This document shows positions 6,267-54,218 of a DNA stretch of 64,000 nucleotides, one piece after another. The stretch is taken from positions 2,294,001 to 2,358,000 of the forward strand of contig CANXME010001453.1 of assembly GCA_948144175.1 (NCBI GenBank), read 5' to 3'. Source of the stretch: Closterium sp. NIES-65. Its lineage: Eukaryota; Streptophyta; Zygnematophyceae; Desmidiales; Closteriaceae. Numbering within the stretch: position 1 is the first letter of the stretch; each line of letters opens with the position of its first letter. A program made the translations under genes and the position numbers. The notes beneath the pieces were generated by a model. That model searched no databases. It was not told the DNA's origin and was given only the letters and a program-made list of their open reading frames with translations.

Positions 6267-6383
6267 TGGTAGCAGAGCGAGTTTCGACCTGGCCTGTGGG
6301 CCCGCCCAATGCTTCCGCTGCTGTATTTCTGGTCACGCGCCTCGGGCGCGTGACGTTTTTCTTTCCTACCCGTCGCGGACCCG

Positions 6384-17720: not shown

Positions 17721-18912
17721 TAGTCTAGACGACAGCGAGCAGCAAAGTCGAGAAGCTCAGCAACTAGGGCAGACGCAGCAGCAGACTCAAACGAAGGGTC
17801 AGTGACAGCAGTGGCCAGAAGACGCGTGACAAAAGGACTGGCAGCACGAAGAGAGTTAGACTTAGGGTCAGGAAGAGCAGGAAAAGAGGACTCAGGAGGA
17901 GACGGCAGAGGGACACGCTGTGGAGCAGTGGAGGGACGCAGTGACATCCGGTGTGTGCCACGGAGTGGTGGCGGACGCTCACGCGGAGTACGGCGACCGG
18001 TGGAAGTAGTACGAACAGGGGACTCAGGACGGGACACAGGTGACACAGGGCAAGACTCCGGCTGACGATGCTCTGTGAGACCGCCTGTAGGACGAGTGTA
18101 GGGAGAAGGACGAGGAAGTGGCGAGGCAGGCGGTAGCTGTGACTGCGACCGAACCGGCGGTGGACACTCTACAGAGGGAGGGGGACAAGGCGTAGGTGAC
18201 TGACCAAGAACGTGTTGAAGGAGTGGAACAAAGTACGGCCGCGGCCGTGAGGTGCCGCGTGCAGCAGCAGAGACAGCACAAGAACCTCCAACAGCTCCAG
18301 CAGCACCCCCAGCACCTCCAACGCCCGGGTCTGCAGCACCAGCAGCAGCTCCAACGCCCGGGTCCGCAGCACCAGTAGCAACTCCAACGCCCTGGTCCGC
18401 AGCACCAGCAGCAGCTCCAACGCCCGGGTCCGCATCACCTGTAGCAACCCTAACTCCAGGGTCCGTAGCACCAGAAGCAGCTCCAACGCCCTGGTCCGCA
18501 GCACCAGCAGCAGCTCCAACGCCCGGGTCTGCAGCACTAGCAGCAGCTCCAACGCCCGGGTCTGCAACACCAGCAGCAGCTCCAACTCCCGGGTCCGCAG
18601 CACCAGTAGCAACCCCAACTCCAGGGTCCGCAGCACCAGCAGCAGCTCCAACGCCCGGGTCCGCAGCATCACCAGCAGCTCCAACTCCAGGGTCCGCAGC
18701 ACCAGTAGCAGGGTCCGCGACACTAGGAGCGCCACTCTTGAGACTGCAGCGGCGTGCGTACCACTCACGAAGACGCTGAGGAGAGGGAAGCTCCTGCCTA
18801 GGCGAGGAAGGACGAGCACCAGCTCCAGCAGCACCCCTAGCTCCAGAAGCACCTCTCCTGAGGCTGCAGTACTGTAAGTACCACTCACGCAGCTGCTATG
18901 ACGAGAGAGCTC

Positions 18913-19053
18913 TGTCAGAATCCCAACCACTAGACCATTGGGATAAAAGGGCTTGTTTCAGTAGCGGGTCAGTGCGCCCATAACCCCCCAGGCAACCGCG
19001 CCTGTAACCCCCCCTAGGATCGATCGGGATCTCACAGTGTAGCTCTACTGACA
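18913..19053 (-). repeat. 3' LTR of TRIM-2
   Basis: 141 bp, TGTCAG...TGACA. Same length and sequence by eye as 19147-19287. AGCTC precedes it. Confidence 0.93.
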
Positions 19054-19112
19054 CCCCCCCACACTGGGAGGCCCAGGACTGAGCACAGTGGCAACGGCCA
19101 ACATGTGCATAC

Positions 19113-19178
19113 ACCGGGATTCGAACCCGAGACCGCTCTGATACCATGTCAGAATCCCAACCACTAGACCATTGGGAT
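19113..19178 (-). promoter_or_regulatory. tRNA-like segment with Pol III A and B boxes in TRIM-2
   Basis: On the minus strand an A-box match TGGTCTAGTGG lies at 19161-19171 (inside the 5' LTR end) and an exact B-box match GGTTCGAATCC at 19117-19127 (inside the internal region). They are 44 nt apart start to start, the spacing of a tRNA gene. Between them TCTGA-CATGGTA-TCAGA gives a 5-bp stem with a 7-nt loop, and around the B box a T-arm can pair. The 5' half resembles tRNA-Glu (ATGGTCTAG). The acceptor stem does not pair, so it is not a functional tRNA. AAAA on the plus strand (TTTT on the minus) sits just upstream of the A box in each LTR (19179-19182, 18945-18948). Confidence 0.65.
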
Positions 19179-19287
19179 AAAAGGGCTTGTTTCAGTAGCG
19201 GGTCAGTGCGCCCATAACCCCCCAGGCAACCGCGCCTGTAACCCCCCCTAGGATCGATCGGGATCTCACAGTGTAGCTCTACTGACA
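19147..19287 (-). repeat. 5' LTR of TRIM-2
   Basis: 141 bp next to the primer site at 19135-19146. AGCTC follows at 19288-19292. Confidence 0.93.
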
Positions 19288-19559
19288 AGCTCCTCCAGGC
19301 GTAGCACTCCCAAGCTCAGCACCCCCGGACTCAGCACCCTCAGACTCAGCAGAAGCAGGCTCCGTACTCCCAGGCTCAGCACCCCCAGACTCCGCACCCC
19401 CAAGCTCAGAACCCTCAGACTCTGCACCCCCAGGCTCAGCACCCCCAGTCTCCGCAACCCTAGGCTCCGCACGCTCAGGCTCAGCACCCCGAGCAGGACG
19501 AGAGTCGACAGCTACCTCGACAGGCTCAACCGGGTCTACCTGGGACACACCTGAGGGAG

Positions 19560-22539: not shown

Positions 22540-23240
22540 TAGGCAGGGCGACTCAGGTAGGGCGGCTCGGTCCAGTACGGGCAGCGCGGCTCGGTTTAGG
22601 TAGGGCGGCTCGGCTTGGGTAGGGCGGCGCGGCTGGGTTCGGGCGGCGCGGCTTGGTTCGGGCTGGGCGGCTCGGTTCGGGCGGCTCGGTTCGGGCTGGG
22701 CGGCTTGGTTCGGGCTGCTCGGTTCGGGCGGCTCGTTTTGGCGGGGCCGTGGGTGTCGCGGCTAGGTGCTAAGGGGCGGCGCGCGGGTCGAGAGGGGGCC
22801 GACGGGGCCGCTAAGGGGCAAACGGGGCCGACGGGGCCTCTAAAGGGGGTCGCGCGTGGGGTCGACGGGGCCAGCGGGGCCGCTAAGGGGCGGCTCGTGG
22901 GGTCGACGGGGCCGGCTGGGGCCTCTTAGAAGGGCGACGCGCGGGGTCGACGGGGCCAGCGGGGCCGCTAAGGGGCGGCACGTGGGGTCGACGGGGCCGA
23001 CGGGGCCACTAAGGGGTGGGCGCGAGGGGCAAACGGGGCCGACAGGGCCTCTAAGCGGGGCCAGCGGGGCCTCTAAGGGGCGGCGCGCGGGGTGGACGGG
23101 GCCTCTAAGGGGCGGCGCGTGGGTCGCTAAGAGGGGGCGGGTCGCGGGTCGCGGGGCCTTAGGGGGCCGTGAAAACGAGGCGCACGAGGGCGCTAGTAGG
23201 CAGCAGTAGTGGTGGGCCCTAGGAATCGGTCCTAGCGGAG
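22540..23240 (-). repeat. GC-rich tandem leader of copia I
   Basis: Repeats of GGCGGCTCGGTTCGGG (about 22560-22740), then units on GGGGCCGACGGGGCC and GGGGTCGACGGGGCC (about 22790-23120). C-rich in the sense strand, as in the other members. Confidence 0.75.
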
Positions 23241-35965: not shown

Positions 35966-36183
35966 CACATCGGAGAAGAAAGGGGGCAATCCAATCGCAT
36001 TATGCAATCATGAGGGGGATCAAAGTGTAGCTGCTGCTGTGCCAGAAAGAAGGGGGAGGGGGAGGGAAGAGGGATAAGGGAATGCGTGGGGGAAGGATTG
36101 ACTGGAAAAGGATTAATAACATGGTGCAGGTCAAGTGAGACTGGTAGGCGGAATGTGCACAAGAGTGTAGGAGACATAAATGT
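35966..36183. other. unannotated host-type DNA beside the tRNA gene
   Basis: Purine-rich sequence continuing from the degenerate family. No feature is seen. No TTTT run lies within the first 25 bases downstream of the tRNA gene, so its terminator is unclear. Confidence 0.5.
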
Positions 36184-36257
36184 TGTCTGAACCCGGAATC
36201 GAACCGGAGACCTCCAGTGTGTGAGACTGGCGTGATAACCGACTACACCATCCAGAC
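36184..36257 (-). tRNA. tRNA-Val (anticodon CAC)
   Basis: On the minus strand a full cloverleaf can be drawn. The acceptor GTCTGGA pairs with TTCAGAC plus discriminator A. The anticodon arm CCAGT-CTCACAC-ACTGG gives anticodon CAC. The T-arm TCCGG-TTCGATT-CCGGG contains a B box GGTTCGATTCC, and the A box is TGGTGTAGTCGG. Length is 74 nt without an intron and no CCA is encoded, as usual for nuclear genes. It decodes the valine codon GTG. It is the only standard tRNA gene I found in the window. Confidence 0.92.
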
Positions 36258-36408
36258 ATGCTTAGGTGGAAAGAAGAAAATTATACAACGATAACAAACT
36301 GGGAGGAGTGGGAGGGACTTTGCAGTGGGAGGGACGAGAGAAGTGGGAGGGACAAGAGGGGTGGGGAAGGAGGACGTGAGAGAGAAGGAAGCAGCAAGTA
36401 TCCTAAAG

Positions 36409-45787: not shown

Positions 45788-45897
45788 TGTCAAATGTTGT
45801 AGCCTGTAGTGAGGTTTGTCTTAGGGGGTACAGAAGTTAGGGTTTGTCATATGTACCCCAACCAACATCAATGCAACATCCATTCCTCATTCTGACA
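45788..45897 (+). repeat. 5' LTR of copia E
   Basis: 110 bp, TGTCAAATG...TTCTGACA, identical by eye to 54109-54218. Confidence 0.95.
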
Positions 45898-46672
45898 TGG
45901 TATCAGCTAGGTTAGGATCATGTGGGATCCCGTTCCTCCGTTCTCCGTTCGTACCTCCCGAGCCTGATCCTACCTCTCGTTCGTACCAGTTTAGTTGTTA
46001 CCGCGCCTAGTACCGAGCCTAGCATCATCTCCCCCGTCGCGTCGCGCCCGTTCCCCCCCGTCGCGTCGCGCCCGTTCCCCCCGTCGCGTCGCGCCCGTTC
46101 CCCCCGTCGCGTCGCGCCTGTTCCCCCCGTCGCGTCGCGCCCGCCTGTTCCCCCCCTGTCCCGTCGCGTCGCCCTGCCCTGTCCCGTCGCCCTGTCCCGT
46201 CGCGTCGCCCTGTCCCGTACCGTCGCCCTGTCCCGTCGCGTCGCCCTGTCCCGTCCCGTCGCGTCGCCCTGTCCCGTCGCGTCGCCCTGTCCCGTCCCGT
46301 CCCGTCCCGTCCCGTCGCCCTGTCCCGTCGCGTCGCCCTACCCCGTCGCGTCGCCCTGCCCTGTCCCGTCGCCCTGCTCCGTCGCGCCGCCCTGCCCCGT
46401 CGCGTCGCCCTGTCCTGTCGCGTCGCCCTGCCCCGTCGCGTCGCTCCCGCCCTTTCTCCCGTCGCGTCGCCCTCCCTAGGCCCTAGCCCGTCGCCCTCCC
46501 TAGGCCCTGGCCCGTCGCCCTCCCTAGGCTCTGGCCCGTCGCCCTACCCTAGGCCCTGGCCCGTTGCCCTACCCTACGTTTTGGCCCGTCGCCCTAGCCC
46601 GCTCTTCCGCTGCGACTGAGTCCTCTTCCCCCCCGGTTGTTACTCGCCTGTTCGTTCGCGTTGCTTCTCACT
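45898..46672 (+). repeat. C-rich tandem leader of copia E
   Basis: After the primer site, about 0.6 kb of CGTCGCGTCGCCCTGTCC-type units (46020-46480), then CCCTAGGCCCTGGCCCGTCG units (46480-46580). Strongly C-rich in the sense strand. The open frame through it (Pro/Val/Ala/Ser repeats) has no recognisable function and I do not call it. Confidence 0.8.
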
Positions 46673-46891
46673 ATGGCGACTCCGCGAGTTCTTCGTTTCG
46701 ACGCTGATGGTAGACCCCTTGACTTTTCCGTCTGGCTTCTTTGCGCTCGTCGTCTGTTAGAGAGTCAGGTCCAGGGGGGCGAGACCCTCTGGTCACACGC
46801 TACTGGTGACCTCCCCGAGCCCCCCGAGCCTACCGCTTTAGGCCCTGCTCCTGACGACGCTGCTACGGCTCGCTTTGCCCGTCAGCGCGCT

Positions 46892-48035
46892 TGTCAAATT
46901 ATATGATTTATATAATTTAGGTTTAGGTTTTGTAGGGGTGTTTCTTAGGGGGTACAACTTTTCTCTCGTCACTTTTGTACCCCATGCCCCAAACTAGTCG
47001 ACGATCATTCCTCTCTCACCTTGACATGGTATAGAGCAGGAAGGTTCCTAGGAAGGGCCCACCACGTTTAAGAATTTTTTTTCTGCCCGGAGCGCGCTTT
47101 GCGTTTCCCCTAGTCGCGCCACGGGCGCTTTCTCCTCGACGGCCAGTTGCGGCCGTTTCTTTCTTCGTTTTTCCCGGCCCCTTTGTTGGCCCCGCGCGAC
47201 TCTCTCACGGCCTCCCCCCCCCCCTCCCTTTTTTTTTTCCACGGCCGTGTCGTGACTCTGTCGCGCCTTTTGCGGCGTCGCTGCCGCCCGGCCGCGGCCT
47301 CGTCGCCGCCGATTCGCGGCCTTGTTGCCGCCGGTTTGCGGCCTGGTCGCCACTGCAGCTGCAGTAGCAGCAGCCGCCGCGCCATCTGCAGCAGCCGCCG
47401 CTGCATCTCCAGCAGCAGCCGCAGCCACACCTTCTGCAGCGGCCGCCGCGTCATTTCCTGCAGCATCAACGGCCGCATTGTCTGCAGCAGCCGCCGCTGC
47501 ATTTTCAGCAGCAGCAACTGCCGCTTCTTCTGCAGCAACTGCCGCTGCATTTCGAGCAGCAGCAACTACTGCACCCTCTTCACCGGCAACTGCCGCATCT
47601 TCAGCAGCAGCCGCCGCTGCATCTACAACAGCAGCAGCTGCTGCATCTTCTCCAGCGGCTCCTTTCGCATCTTCAGCAGCAGCCGCCGCAGCATCTCCTG
47701 CAGCAGCAGCTGCCGCATCTTCATCAGCAGCCGCCGCAGCATCTACTGCAGCAGCAGCTGCCGCATCTTCATCAGCAGCCGCCGCAGCATCTACTGCAGC
47801 AGCAGCTGCCGCATCTTCAGCAGCAGCCGCCGCAGCATCTACTGCAGCAGCAGCTGCCGCATCTTCAGCAGCAGCCGCCGCAGCATCTCCTGCAGCAGCA
47901 GCTGCCGCACCTTCTGCAGCAGCAGCCGCCGCCACCTCCTGCAGCGACAACTGCCGCATCTACTGTAGCAGCAGCCGCCGCCACATCCTACAGCGGCAAC
48001 TGCCGCATCTTCACCAGCAGCCGCCGCCACATCCT
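46892..48035 (+). mobile_element. insertion N in copia E: LTR plus leader scrap flanked by a 38-bp duplication
   Basis: A 135-bp LTR of another copia (46892-47026, TGTCAAATT...TTGACA), its primer site TGGTATAGAGCAGG (47027-47040), and a leader made of GCAGCAGCCGCCGCTGCATC units (about 47350-48030). No gag, pol or second LTR is present. Copia E sequence of 38 bp (ending GTCAGCGCGCT) occurs exactly on both sides: 46854-46891 and 48036-48073. A normal integration would leave 5 bp, so this looks like capture of a fragment with a long target duplication. Confidence 0.88.
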
Positions 48036-48049
48036 ACGACGCTGCTACG

Positions 48050-49779
48050 GCTCGCTTTGCCCGTCAGCGCGCTGACCGGACGGCTTGGACGTCGCGTGAC
48101 GCTGCGGCCTGCATCGCACTCAGCAGCCTCCTCCCTGAGTCCGAGGAGGTCCACTTTACTCAGGTTCGCACCGCTGCTGCGTACCTCACTGCGATTAAGG
48201 CCCGCTACTCTACTCCCGCTACTGTCTCTCTCGGCCGTCTTTTCCTCCCGTTCCTGTTTCCTGATCTTGCCTCGTTTGAGCGCTCTGCTGACTTGATCGC
48301 TCACCTCCGCTCGCTCGACGCTAGTTACCGCGCTGCTTGCACTGAGGCACAGCTTGCACTGCTTCCTCCCCCCATGGCGATTACTGTCTATTTCATCGCC
48401 ACTAGCCTCCCTGACCGCCTTGCCTCCGTTCGTGACGCGCTTCTGCTGAAGCACCCTAGTGAGCTGACTATCGAGGTCCTTGAGTCTGCACTCAAGGACG
48501 TCGAGAGCAACCTTCGTTCGGTAGCTGCCGCCTCTGGTACTGTGTCCCCCCCACTCTTCCACGGGTGCACAGTCCCGCAGTTACCCACCTTCACTGCCTC
48601 TCTTGCCACTGCCGCTACTGACGCGACTGCGGCTGCTGTTACGACTGCGTCGCGGTCCCGCGGCAAGGGGGGCAAGAAAGGTGGTTCCGGTGGAGGTGGA
48701 GGCGGAGGTAGCGGAGGTAGTGGGGGTGCTGTTGCGACTGGCGGTGGTGGGAGTGCAGCGTCTGGAGAGACCCCTCGTGCAGCGGCTGGTGACTCCACTG
48801 CACCTGCTGGTGGCGGCGACCCTCGAGCTCGTCAGTCGCCTCCTGTACTGCCGGCCCCGCTAGGTGGAGCAGCGGCGTGGTACCAGGCTCAGCGTCAGCA
48901 GCACCTTCAGCAGCAGCAGCAGCCCCTTTCCTCCCAGCAGCCTCAGCAGCAGCAGCGTCAGCAGCTGGCTCCGGGGTCGGGGCTGCGTCAGCCCCAGCGC
49001 GGTGCTGCTTACCCTCCCTGCCCCTACCAGGTTCAGACAGGTCCTCGTCGGGGCCACCCTTGTGGCCGCTTTCACCCCCCTGGTCAGTGCTTTGCTCAGC
49101 TCACTGACACGGTCCGGTTGACCTACGGGGTTGGCGGTCCTGCTCCTGACTGGCTTCCTCTGGTTCAGCGCCACGGCTCCGCTCTGTGGGGCATGTCTGC
49201 TGAGCAGTTAGTTGATCTGATTAGTGCTCCTCATGCTATGTATGCTGTTGTTGACTCTAGTGTTTCTGACTCTGTTTACTCTGGTGTTGTTAGCTTAGGT
49301 GCTAGTCTTGCTCAGTTGCCTGTTGCTAGTGTAGGTACTTGTGTAGACTCTAGACCAGCGACTACCTCAGAGGACGCTTCGCTGTCGTTCACACTGGACT
49401 CTGGAGCCTCCCACTGCTTCTTCCGGGACAGCACGACACTTACACCACTTCCTGCGCCTGTTTCTGTAGCGTTGGCTGATCCCACTACGGGACCAGTCAC
49501 TGCACGTCACACTACCACTTTACCGTGTCCTGCTGCTCCCTCTGGGTCTCTCACTGGGTTTCACGTCCCCTCGTTCTCCCGGAACTTGGTGGGCGTGCGA
49601 CCCCTCGTGAGTCAGCACGTGGGTGTGTGGTTTGAGCCTTCTGGAGAGACTGCGGTGTGTGTTGACGGAGACTCTTACCAGCCTCTTGCTACCTTTACTG
49701 CTGAGCCGGGCTCGGGTCTCTACACTCTTCACACTGGCCCGCGTGCGCCGCAGCAGCAGCCGCAGCAGCAGCAGCAGCC

Positions 49780-49836
<57 letters not shown>

Positions 49837-51000
49837 CCAGCAGCCGCACCAGCAGCCCCCCCTACTGCCACTGCCCCCGGTTCCCCCCCCCGTTCGGGTC
49901 CCCGCGTCTCACCAGGTTGCTACGTCCCCCCAGGTGTCTGTGTCGTGTCTGGTTCCTACGTCTGTTCCAGTCGCTGCGTCGTGCTCCTGCCGGTCGCTTG
50001 CCCACCCCACCGTTCTGTGGCACCACCGGATGGGGCACCCGTCCCTTCCACGTCTGCGCGCTATGTCTAGTCAGCGTCTTGTCCTAGGCCTCCCACGTGT
50101 CTTGCCGTCGCTGCCGCCCTCGCCTGCGCCGCCGTGTCGTCCCTGCGTCGAGGGTAGGCTGCGCGCCACCCCTCACTCCTCCTCCCTTCGTCCGGCCACC
50201 GAGCCTTTTGAGACGCTTCACTTGGACGTCTGGGGCCCAGCCCCTCGTCTAGGCCCTGAGCGTGAGCGTTACTTTCTGGTGGTAGTTGACGACTTCTCCC
50301 GCTACACCACAGTGTTCCCTCTGGCGAAGAAGTCTGAGGTGACTTCTACGCTGATCAGGTGGTTGCTCACCACTGAGGACACTCGTGGTCGTCGTGTCAG
50401 CTGTCTCCACTCCGACCGTGGGGGTGAGTTTCGCTCCGGCATTCTCGCTGGATTCTGTCGCGAGCAGGGCATTCGTCAGTCCTGGACGCTTCCAGAGTCC
50501 CCACAGCAGAATGGGGTTGCTGAGCGCCGCATAGGCCTGGTCATGGAGATCGCCCGCACCTCCCTGACTCACGCCTGTGCCCCCCATTTTCTGTGGCCCT
50601 ACGCGGTCAGGTACGCCGCGCACCAGCTGAACCTCTGGCCACGTGTCTCTCGACCAGAGGTTTCACCGACCAGTCTTTGGACAGGGTCCCCTGGTGTTGC
50701 GTCGCGGTTTCGTGTCTGGGGGTGCTTGGCTCTTGTCCGCGACACCTCCGCGGACAAGCTCTCGCCTCGTGCCGTCCCCTGTGTCTTCCTTGGTTTCCCT
50801 GAGGACTCCTCTGACTTCACCTTTTACCACCCTCCCTCTCACCGGTTCTTTGACTCCTGTGACGTCCGTTTCGAGGAGTCCACTCCGTACTACGTCAGGT
50901 ACCCCAGTCGAGGTCTCCCGGTTCCTCCTCCCCCCCTCTTCCTGACTGCCGTTCCCCCTCCTGCTCCCCCGGTACAGCCTCCCCCCCCTGGTCCAGCCCC
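48050..51000 (+). pseudogene. gag, protease and integrase parts of copia E
   Basis: In order: capsid-like gag end (RYSTPATVSLGRLFLPFLF), a basic Gly-rich patch (SRGKGGKKGGSGGGG), a Gln-rich tract, and the knuckle CPYQVQTG...PCGRFHPPGQC. Protease DSGASHCFFRDS follows. A poly-Gln run is encoded at about 49750-49860, then LWHHRMGHPSLPRLR, and integrase with HSDRGGEFRSG (about 50408-50438) and SPQQNGVAERRIGLV. By family the products package RNA, process the polyprotein and integrate DNA. Part of a nearly whole but broken element. Confidence 0.85.
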
Positions 51001-52299
51001 GTCGGGTGTGTCCCAGGCTACCCCTCCTCCTTCGGTAGCCCCTCCGGTACAGCCTCCCTCCCCACAGTCCTCCTCGCAGCGTGCCGCTGGTGCTAGCTCT
51101 CGAGAGGTTGGTGCGGCGCCTGTTCCTGTACCGGTTTCTGGTTCTGGGGGTGCTGGAGTTGGAGCTGGAGTTAGAGCTGGAGTTGGCACTGGAGTTTCTG
51201 GTTCTGGGGGTGCTGGAGTTGGAGCTGGAGTTTCAGGTTCTGGAGTTGGAGCTGACCCGGTGGGTGCAGAGGACTCTTGTCGTCCGGGAGCTGGTGCTGG
51301 CCGCGCGGACACTGGGGGTGCTGCGTCTGGGGGTGAGGGTGCGCCTCCTTCGGGTTCAGGTGAGCCGGGTTCTGGAGCTGGTGTTAGTGCTGCCTCTGGG
51401 GGTGGTGCGCCTAGTTCTTCTGAGGTGGACTCTGGAGCTGCCGCTGCTTCGGACACTACTCCACCCCCCCACCCCTACCCGACTAGGCACCAGACTCGTG
51501 TTCGCCGTGCCCGTGACGAGCAGCTGGCGTTGGAGAGAGAGGAGAGGGAGTTACAGCGGCTGGAGGAGCAGCAGCAGCAGCTGGAGCCGCAGGAGCAGCA
51601 GCAGCAGCAGCAGCAGCAGCTGGACCCGCAGGAGCAGCAGTCCCAGCAGCAGCCGCGTCCGCAGCAGCAGCAGTCGCAGCCGCAGCAGCAGCAGCCACTT
51701 CCTCCTCCTGTCTCGGGTCTTCGGATCCTTGGTCTCCCCTCCCCTTCTCCTCCCTCCTCTGCCTCTCCTCCTGTCTACGGTCCCACGTTTCCTCCTCCTG
51801 ACTCCTCCCCCGCTGTTTTCCCCAGTTCTCCGCCTTTGTCCTCTCCTCCTCCGTCTCGTTCTTGGGCTACTCGTCGCTCCCCTCGTGCTCGTCCCTGGTC
51901 TCCTGTTCCCTTCACTGACCTTCGTACTGCCTTCCTTCTTTCTAGTCCACCTCGTCCGTCTTAGTCTGTGCTTCCGTCTCCTCCTGAGTCGGCCCTCATT
52001 GTGTCGCTCCCTACTCCTGTCACTGACTACTACCGCACGTACCGTCCTGTTCTCTCTCGTGTTCTCGCCTCTCTTGTTACTCACCCTCGTGCCTCTGTGT
52101 CCTCTGTGTCCGCTCTTACTGCCGCAGTTACTGACTTTGCCTCTACCCGCCGCCTTGACTACGCCACCACGCTTGTGGCTGCTCCTCCTACCAGTCCTCT
52201 GGCCGTCGGGGGTGTGTCTGCCCTTGGCTGTGACGCCCTAGAGGACAGGCAGTTTGAGCTAGAGTTCCTGGCGGCCGCTTCCCCTCATCTCTGTGCCAT

Positions 52300-53890
52300 G
52301 CTCCTCGCCCCTGAGGGTGACCCCGACGCCCTTGACATTCCGACTCCTCGCACTTACGCTGAGGCAGTGTCAGGGCCTTGGGCCTCTCAGTGGAGAGCTG
52401 CCATGGACGCAGAGATGGCCTCCTACAGATCCACAGGCACCTACGTCGATGAGGTTCCCCCCCCTGGGGCGAACGTAGTCGACGGCATGTGGATCTACAG
52501 GGTGAAGCGGCCACCGGGATCTCCCCCGGTCTTCAAGGCGCGCTACGTGGCTAGAGGTTTCAGTCAGCGCGAGGGAGTTGACTTCTTTCAGACCTTCGCA
52601 CCTACCCCGAAGATGACCACTCTTCGGGTGTTACTACACGTAGCAGCACAGAGAGACTACAAGTTACACTCTCTCGACTTCTCCACTGCTTTCCTTCAGG
52701 GCAGCCTACACGAGGAGGTCTGGTTGCGTCGTCCCTCGGCCTTCACTGGCACCTTCCCTCCTGGGACCCAGTGGAGGCTGAGGCGACCTGTTTACGGTCT
52801 TCGCCAGGCCCCTCGTGAGTGGCACGACACTCTGCGTTCTACCCTCTCTGACCTTGGGTTCCAGCCGTCTTCTGCCGACCCGTCGCTGTTCGTTCGTCGT
52901 GGCTCCACACCGTTCTTTGTTTTGGTCTACGTCGACGACCTCGTTTTCGCCACTTCGGACAGGGTTGCTTTGGCAGACGTGAAGTCCGAACTGCAGAAGA
53001 GACACACGTGCACTGATCTTGGTGAGCTGCGCCACTACCTTGGCCTGCAGATCACCAGGGACAGAGCCGCTCGCACCATTACACTCTCACAGTCACACAT
53101 GGTGCAGCAGGTCCTTCAGCGGTTCGGGCTTCAGCACTCCACCGTACAGCGCACACCTCTGGCTGTTGACCACAGACTCACTGGTCCCTTTCCTGACGAG
53201 CCGTTTGAGCCTAGTGGTCCCTACGCAGAGCTTGTGGGTTGCCTCATGTACCTGATGACTTGTACTCGCCCGGACCTCGCCTTCCCTCTCAGCATCCTTG
53301 CGCGCTTTGTTGCGCCAGGGAGACACCGTCCTGTTCACTGGACGGCAGCTGTGAGGGTGGCGAAGTACCTAGCGACTACATCAGGCGTGGGGCTAGTTCT
53401 TGGAGGGCAGCAGTCTGTCGTACTCACTGGTCACTGTGACTCCTCTTACGCTGACGACGCTGAGACTCACAGGTCTACTCAGGGGTACTGTTTCAGTCTG
53501 GGTTCTGGAGCTGTTTCCTGGCGTTCCACGCGCTCCTCTTCTGTCTCGACCTCTACAGCTGAGGCTGAGATTTACGCTGTTGCCATGGCGGCACAGGAGT
53601 TACGGTGGTTGACCTTCTTGCTCGCCGACCTTGGTGAGCGGCCGAGCTCTGCACCGACCTTGTTTACTGACAACAAGGCGTCGATCCTCCTCTGTCGTGA
53701 GCCGCGACTGGAGAGCAGAGTGAAGCACATTCACGTCAGGTACTTTCTTCTGCGAGAGTTGCAGAGGAGTGGACAGGCTCGCTTCGAGTTTGTAGAGTCC
53801 GAGGCCAACACTGCAGACATCTTCACCAAGGCGCTTCCGCCTTGTGACCACCAGAGGTGTTGTGTGCAGTTAGGCCTTGTTGACACAGGT
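52300..53890 (+). pseudogene. RT and RNase H part of copia E
   Basis: MDAEMASYRSTGTYVDEVPP, FKARYVARGFSQREGVDFF, LDFSTAFLQGSLHEEVWL, VYGLRQAPREWHDTL and LVYVDDLVFATSD define copia RT. RNase H has VSWRSTRSSSVSTSTAEAEI, FTDNKASILL and ANTADIFTKALPPCDHQRC. All key motifs are present. The element as a whole is counted as broken. Confidence 0.88.
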
Positions 53891-53964
53891 TCTAGTCATG
53901 CGTAGACTTGAGTTTATTGCCTGCTTCGTCTGTACACTTACTATATATACTTGTGATCTCTTGG

Positions 53965-54060
53965 ACTGGCCTTGTGGCCACTGTTGCTTGTGCTCAGAGT
54001 GTGTGGTGACGTTGTGATCCACCCTGAGCTTTGTTTTCTTTTGGACTGGTCTTGTGACCG
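53965..54060 (+). other. conserved 3' untranslated block, copia E copy
   Basis: GCCTTGTGGCCACTGTTGCT and GTGTGGTGACGTTGTGATCC, then CACCCTGAGCTT and ACTGGTCTTGTGACC, lie between RNase H and the polypurine tract. Near-identical blocks sit in copia F (about 61725-61825), fragment L (about 30555-30655), and on the minus strand in copia B (about 8525-8625) and copia I (about 15770-15870). Confidence 0.75.
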
Positions 54061-54108
54061 TACTCTTTTTGTTTTTGCTAGACACCCCTCACTTAGGCTA
54101 TGGGGGTG

Positions 54109-54218
54109 TGTCAAATGTTGTAGCCTGTAGTGAGGTTTGTCTTAGGGGGTACAGAAGTTAGGGTTTGTCATATGTACCCCAACCAACATCAATGCAACAT
54201 CCATTCCTCATTCTGACA
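54109..54218 (+). repeat. 3' LTR of copia E
   Basis: 110 bp. CGATG target duplication follows at 54219-54223. Confidence 0.95.

What the first reader, a model, noticed from the sequence alone, without database searches (positions are those of the whole stretch)
18913..19287. A 375-bp LTR element whose LTR/primer junction is a tRNA-like Pol III promoter
Seen: identical 141-bp LTRs, a 5-bp target duplication, and 93 bp inside. On the minus strand an A box (19161-19171, in the LTR) and an exact B box (19117-19127, internal) are 44 nt apart. Between them the LTR end and primer site form a 5-bp stem and 7-nt loop, and a T-arm surrounds the B box. A TTTT lies just upstream of the A box in both LTRs, so a Pol III transcript begun in the 5' LTR would be expected to stop in the 3' LTR just short of the same point. 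Known: Cassandra TRIMs carry 5S rRNA promoters in their LTRs, and SINEs use tRNA promoters. Inference: TRIM-2 may be a tRNA-promoter counterpart, a bridge between SINEs and TRIMs, transcribed by Pol III while keeping LTR-style reverse transcription.
Basis: partly seen in the sequence, partly recalled or inferred. Interest (0 to 1): 0.82.

Follow-up and report, generated by a model that had tools for sequence, protein, structure and literature searches.

The report
Tiny retrotransposon with split tRNA promoter
A very small jumping element, present in thousands of copies in this plant-like genome, appears to carry a tRNA-gene promoter that is cut in two by the end of its terminal repeat; small elements with a whole tRNA promoter inside the repeat are already known, so this is a new arrangement of a known kind.

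Summary
The 375-bp element, read on the minus strand, has identical 141-bp LTRs, a 93-bp interior, an iMet-type primer site, a G-rich polypurine tract and a 5-bp target duplication. It belongs to a family with at least three subfamilies and 11,121 LTR matches in an 874-Mb genome. Exact 5-bp duplications flank 33 of 45 two-LTR copies and 6 of 6 solo LTRs: an LTR element, not a SINE.

The LTR/primer junction resembles a tRNA gene: apart from that gene itself it is the best match to the window's own tRNA-Val among 4,262 windows. A and B boxes vary less than U3 and interior. Variation at the U3/U5 junction, 17 nt before the A box at a CAA, fits a Pol III start; RNA from there to the TTTT of the 3' LTR would be about 244 nt with a 10-nt terminal repeat. 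Transcription is untested.

A tRNA-promoter TRIM is not a new idea: Kojima 2024 described Helenus and TRIMp3. Here the A box is in the LTR but the B box lies beyond the primer site, so solo and 3' LTRs hold half a promoter. New variant of a known kind; moderate interest.

The parts
18913..19287 (-). whole element, 375 bp (subfamily F1, my name)
   Evidence: 40 scored genome matches all cover 1-375
18908..18912 (.). target site duplication AGCTC, one side
19288..19292 (.). target site duplication AGCTC, other side
19147..19287 (-). 5' LTR, TGTCAG...CTGACA
   Evidence: identical to the other LTR
18913..19053 (-). 3' LTR
19054..19146 (-). interior, 93 bp
19187..19189 (-). CAA; predicted RNA start at the A, 19188
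   Evidence: inferred from U3/U5 junction variation and CAA starts of plant tRNA genes (passages of PMC11700998)
19179..19182 (-). TTTT in the 5' LTR
18945..18948 (-). TTTT in the 3' LTR, predicted Pol III stop; the only other TTTT of the element is the one in the 5' LTR
   Evidence: termination inferred
19161..19171 (-). A box TGGTCTAGTGG
18927..18937 (-). A box without a B box, in the 3' LTR
   Evidence: element position 351; no B box after it
19135..19146 (-). primer site TGGTATCAGAGC for tRNA-iMet
   Evidence: iMet genes in own genome
19117..19127 (-). B box GGTTCGAATCC, outside the LTR
19054..19064 (-). polypurine tract GTGTGGGGGGG
   Evidence: sequence; function by analogy
19154..19178 (-). 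7-bp hairpin ATCCCAA / TTGGGAT whose loop is the A box
   Evidence: covariation test weak

Best explanation
It is a TRIM (miniature non-autonomous LTR retrotransposon) transcribed by RNA polymerase III from a tRNA-type promoter that straddles the LTR boundary: A box in U5, then the iMet primer site, then the B box in the interior. RNA starts at a CAA 17 nt upstream of the A box, runs through the element and ends at the TTTT of the 3' LTR (about 244 nt, terminal repeat AAGCCCUUUU of about 10 nt). Initiator tRNA-Met primes reverse transcription, and LTR-retrotransposon enzymes supplied in trans, most likely of Copia type, finish and integrate the copy with a 5-bp duplication. As the B box is outside the LTR, only LTR plus interior makes a full promoter; solo and 3' LTRs are half promoters. 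Shown: LTR element, primer site, tRNA likeness, box conservation. Inferred: Pol III, start, stop, helper.
For: 5-bp duplications at 33 of 45 two-LTR copies (35 after two were checked by hand) and 6 of 6 solo LTRs. iMet genes: 6 of 33 matches are 100% over 72 nt of a recalled plant sequence. Sense, collinear match to tRNA-Val. Minority letters: A box 16 of 1056, U3 5' part 226 of 6425 (p 0.0003); B box fixed positions 6 of 480, interior after B 72 of 2186 (p 0.016). 1,134 PBS-linked B boxes differ at the degenerate position, 92 at the fixed C. U3/U5 junction is the most variable segment with more than one kind of site, 60 of 578, with A tracts in 13 of 113 instances. The only TTTT per LTR is downstream of CAA; no AATAAA or TGTAA in either copy tested.
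Against: No transcript data. RNA does not fold as a cloverleaf; tRNA model below cut-off. The A box is not clearly better kept than its U5 neighbours (16 of 1056 against 70 of 2966, p 0.11). The T variant of the B box is mostly one subfamily, so one event. Promoter-proximal TTTT would have to be read through in the 5' LTR. A tracts could be slippage, or the mark of a poly(A) tail (Pol II). The DNA upstream of the CAA is G+C-rich, unlike plant tRNA genes (passages). In 7 of the first 30 loci the same interior follows a 5' LTR that lacks the A box.
Confidence: 0.62

Rival explanations
1. Ordinary Pol II TRIM: the tRNA-like stretch is a relic, RNA is made by Pol II and polyadenylated, and A tracts at the U3/U5 junction come from strand transfer on a poly(A) tail.
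For: A tracts at the junction in several contexts; chimera L015 ends its TRIM part in an A run there; an interior with B box also follows LTRs without an A box.
Against: B box and A box vary less than interior and U3; no AATAAA or TGTAA in the two copies tested; the inferred RNA start falls at the distance expected of a tRNA-type promoter.
Confidence: 0.25
2. RNA-level tRNA mimicry: the tRNA-like sequence acts in the RNA, round the primer site, to attract primer tRNA or its synthetase (as recalled for the tRNA-like element of HIV-1), not as a promoter.
For: The primer site sits exactly in the anticodon-arm place.
Against: The RNA is not predicted to fold that way (z -0.29); conservation sits on the box positions, with the B box's degenerate position free.
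Confidence: 0.08
3. Extended primer site: the B-box region is a longer complement of tRNA-iMet, not a T-arm in sense.
For: Other elements in this window do have long iMet complements after the primer site.
Against: After the 12-nt PBS the TRIM gains little against antisense iMet (total 34, of which 24 is the PBS), while it matches tRNA-Val in sense with 43 against 19 antisense.
Confidence: 0.03
4. SINE that happens to be repeated.
For: Short length and tRNA-type boxes.
Against: TG...CA ends, PBS, PPT, fixed 5-bp duplications, solo LTRs with duplications.
Confidence: 0.01

Closest known systems
Helenus (TRIM with tRNA-like sequence in the LTR; TRIMp3), Kojima 2024, PMC10886601; only plant family named there is Helenus-1_SMo of Selaginella (LTR 120 bp, interior 85 bp)
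   Same: TRIM size, LTRs, PBS, PPT, 5-bp duplication as in fungal and plant Helenus, tRNA-type A and B boxes, no predicted functional tRNA, high copy number, tandem arrays.
   Different: In the text and legends I read, both boxes lie in the LTR; here the B box is in the interior beyond the PBS. The layout of Helenus-1_SMo is not stated there, so it could be alike.
Cassandra (TRIM with 5S rRNA promoter in the LTR)
   Same: TRIM thought to be made by Pol III; short terminal repeat (18 bp in Cassandra as cited in PMC10886601, about 10 predicted here).
   Different: 5S promoter wholly inside the LTR; here tRNA-type and split.
tRNA-derived SINE (SINE2)
   Same: Short, non-coding, tRNA-type boxes.
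   Different: This has LTRs, PBS, PPT and fixed 5-bp duplications.
Copia elements of the same window, e.g. 45788-54218
   Same: LTR ending ATTCTGACA, primer site starting TGGTATCAG, 5-bp duplication CGATG.
   Different: Autonomous size with integrase and reverse transcriptase domains; no tRNA-like stretch was seen by the tRNA-Val scan there.

Membership tests
TRIM | LTRs, under 1000 bp, no coding capacity | tested here: met
   (141-bp LTRs, 375 bp)
TRIM | primer site next to the 5' LTR and polypurine tract next to the 3' LTR | tested here: met
TRIM | target duplication of fixed length, solo LTRs | tested here: met
   33 of 45 and 6 of 6
Helenus | tRNA-like sequence with A and B box inside the LTR | tested here: not met
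   A box in LTR, B box in interior in the window copy and in subfamilies F2 and F3
TRIMp3 (TRIM with a Pol III promoter) | small-RNA-gene-derived Pol III promoter elements | tested here: inconclusive
   sequence and conservation fit; Kojima's wording places the sequence in the LTR, here half of it is
TRIMp3 (TRIM with a Pol III promoter) | transcribed by Pol III | not testable with these tools
   no RNA or ChIP data
Cassandra | 5S rRNA sequence in the LTR | tested here: not met
   Rfam scan of the window lists only tRNA at gathering score; no 5S match up to E 10 in 18880-19320
SINE | no LTRs, target-primed insertion | tested here: not met
functional tRNA gene | scores as a tRNA | tested here: not met
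   0 of 20 further copies

The most novel reading that the evidence does not exclude
A tRNA gene was turned into an LTR element at its anticodon arm: LTR end and primer site were built into that arm, splitting the promoter. Only elements with LTR plus interior can then be Pol III genes, solo and 3' LTRs are silent halves, and a start at CAA just ahead of TTTT gives a minimal terminal repeat of about 10 nt, with start and stop almost on top of each other.
Probability: 0.42. Interest if true: 0.66.

Novelty: new variant of a known kind. Interest (0 to 1): 0.5.

Why it matters
If true, a Pol III promoter of an LTR element need not lie in the LTR, so screens that look for tRNA-like sequence in LTRs alone would miss such elements. 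It would separate the promoter of intact elements from solo LTRs, and it offers a young, high-copy family in which start, stop and first strand transfer of a Pol III retroelement can be measured directly.

Tried and rejected
Cloverleaf folding and tRNA prediction: no support. Source tRNA with the exact word GGTCTAGTGGTTAGGAT: 41 places; I read 22 of 41 (L141-L160, L139, L035), all TRIM copies. Hairpin covariation: 3 double changes at one pair among 203 contexts; the matching could skip instances and 20 loci had been chosen on a stem letter, so not used. Insertion hotspot of other LTR elements after ACAAG: 5 of 7 events in a selected sample, while 1 of 5 in loci not selected there lies near it: not claimed. 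Breakpoint map: the cluster at the junction is mostly selected, so not used as proof. Alignment scripts (stopped by an error after two of three groups; kept only 9 copies) were replaced.

Limits: one search uses 97 distinct instances from loci L009-L038 and L089-L132 that hold one exact 25-mer, so that stretch is fixed by choice; copies are related, so p-values are rough. In 'unselected' means not chosen on the junction; it includes L001-L008, which are the best matches, and leaves out loci above L140; the selected loci gave 11 of 18. Of the 12 misses among 45, two (L114, L118) were cut two bases early by my script and do have exact duplications, and L017, L025, L126 (preceded by a G run, tandem) and L129 (edge) could not show one. 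One search counts a few instances twice (L012 and L013 overlap).

Full report
Observation. The element is as described, read on the minus strand. Identical 141-bp LTRs enclose 93 bp; AGCTC is duplicated. In element coordinates CAA is at 99, TTTT at 106 and 340, A box at 117 and 351, B box at 161 only.

What it is. In the window's own genome (874 Mb, 2,400 contigs, unnamed) 40 of 1,468 candidates were scored and all 40 cover the full 375 bases. A 25-mer of the LTR occurs 11,121 times with up to three mismatches, 0 in the reversed control. PBS followed within 30 nt by an exact B box occurs 2,124 times, control 0. I see three subfamilies (names mine): F1 (this copy), F2 (about 347 bp, spacer between PBS and B box three bases longer) and F3 (B box GGTTCGATTCC). 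By script, 33 of 45 two-LTR copies not chosen on the junction, 11 of 18 chosen ones and 6 of 6 solo LTRs have exact 5-bp duplications; two of the misses prove to have one.

tRNA likeness. The junction aligns in sense and in order with the tRNA-Val gene at 36182-36258: D-arm side in the LTR, variable loop and T-arm side in the interior, PBS in the anticodon-arm place. Scores are 43 (F1) and 45 (F2) against 19 antisense; 0 of 2000 mononucleotide shuffles reach them. Among 4,262 windows of this 64 kb it is the best outside that gene. The D-arm also resembles tRNA-Glu as I recall it; the parent tRNA is open, and no tRNA gene with the searched D-arm word was met in 22 of 41 places read.

Conservation. 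In 97 LTR instances minority letters are 1.5% in the A box, 1.25% in the ten fixed B-box positions, 3.5% in the 5' part of U3, 3.3% in the interior after the B box, 4.7% in the PBS, 5.9% in the PBS-B spacer, 10.4% at the U3/U5 junction, and 5 of 48 at the B box's degenerate position. The A box is not clearly better kept than the rest of U5 (2.4%, p 0.11). Genome counts: 1,134 PBS-linked B boxes differ only at the degenerate position, 92 at the fixed C; the first is mostly one subfamily, so it is nearer one event than a thousand.

Start and stop. After CTAC and before GCCCTTTT the copies read TGAAACAA, TTAACAA, TTAAACAA, ACAAACAA, or A tracts of 5 to 12; 13 of 113 instances have lost the C to an A run. 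Tracts of seven or more As behind CTACTG number 49, against 6,435 places within one mismatch of the common form, so under 1%: rare. They form 14 pairs at LTR spacing by my count of that list; L009, L033, L079, L093 and L120 also carry a tract in both LTRs, so it was there at insertion. In LTR reverse transcription the copy of the RNA 5' end meets U3 at such a boundary. It lies 17 nt before the A box at a CAA; in Arabidopsis CAA triplets within ten bases upstream act as tRNA gene starts (passages of PMC11700998). Chimera L015 joins TRIM U3 to another family's U5 at the same place in both outer LTRs, with a TAGCT duplication. Start at 19188 and stop at 18945 would give 244 nt with AAGCCCUUUU at both ends. 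Against this: slippage or a poly(A) tail could make the A tracts, and many could descend from few ancestors.

Primer and helper. Six of 33 matches to a recalled plant iMet sequence are 100% over 72 nt, so the primer tRNA is present. Six RuBisCO small-subunit matches also point to a green host, perhaps a streptophyte; not established. Of 12 ORFs of 350 aa or more I scanned 10; three have RVT_2 and three have rve integrase domains (one has both), of Copia type. The Copia at 45788-54218 has identical 110-bp LTRs, a CGATG duplication and ATTCTGACA followed by TGGTATCAG, the terminus and primer start of the TRIM: a candidate helper class, not a proven partner.

Literature. Kojima 2024 (PMC10886601; outline, parts 1-4 of 6, figure section and passages seen) defines Helenus and TRIMp3. 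Six searches listed nothing that I recognised from title or abstract as a TRIM with its A box in the LTR and its B box beyond the PBS; that is all I can say about print. Papers on Cassandra (PMC10853983, PMC7215508) were seen as passages only.

Verdict. Real, young, abundant: a TRIMp3-like element with a split promoter. It fails the Helenus definition on one tested feature but, as far as sequence can show, works like one.

Noticed in passing
window 6267-6322 (+); weaker at 23160 (-), 3840 (-), 27090 (-): After the primer-site word the DNA matches the complement of tRNA-iMet over most of its length (score 62 at 6267; 47, 45 and 40 at the others, with a shared GGGCCCACC block): extended or multi-box primer contacts in other elements of this window.
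   Followed up: partly
L010, L014, L015, L027, L032, L035, L037: 7 of the first 30 loci: the TRIM interior (PBS to B box) follows a foreign or chimeric 5' LTR, joined at the PBS; L037 and L015 have a matching outer LTR pair and duplications (GAATT, TAGCT), so composites moved as units.
   Followed up: partly
L023, L024, L030, L038, L056, L124: F2 copies whose LTR ends CTGAGA instead of CTGACA; 5 of these 6 still have exact 5-bp duplications, so the usual CA end is not needed.
   Followed up: no
L017, L126, L092: Tandem arrays sharing LTRs, as reported for Cassandra and a fish Helenus.
   Followed up: no
L067-L070, L072, L075, L076, L012: Other LTR elements inserted at or next to the predicted TRIM start (ACAAG); the sample was selected for breaks there, so this is only a weak hint of Ty3-like targeting of Pol III starts.
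   Followed up: partly
L047, L053: Short stray pieces of about 45-50 bp that begin near AACAAG and end at the LTR end, like a strong-stop copy; found by a search that required that start region.
   Followed up: partly
window 45788-54218: Complete-looking Copia with identical 110-bp LTRs and CGATG duplication.
   Followed up: partly
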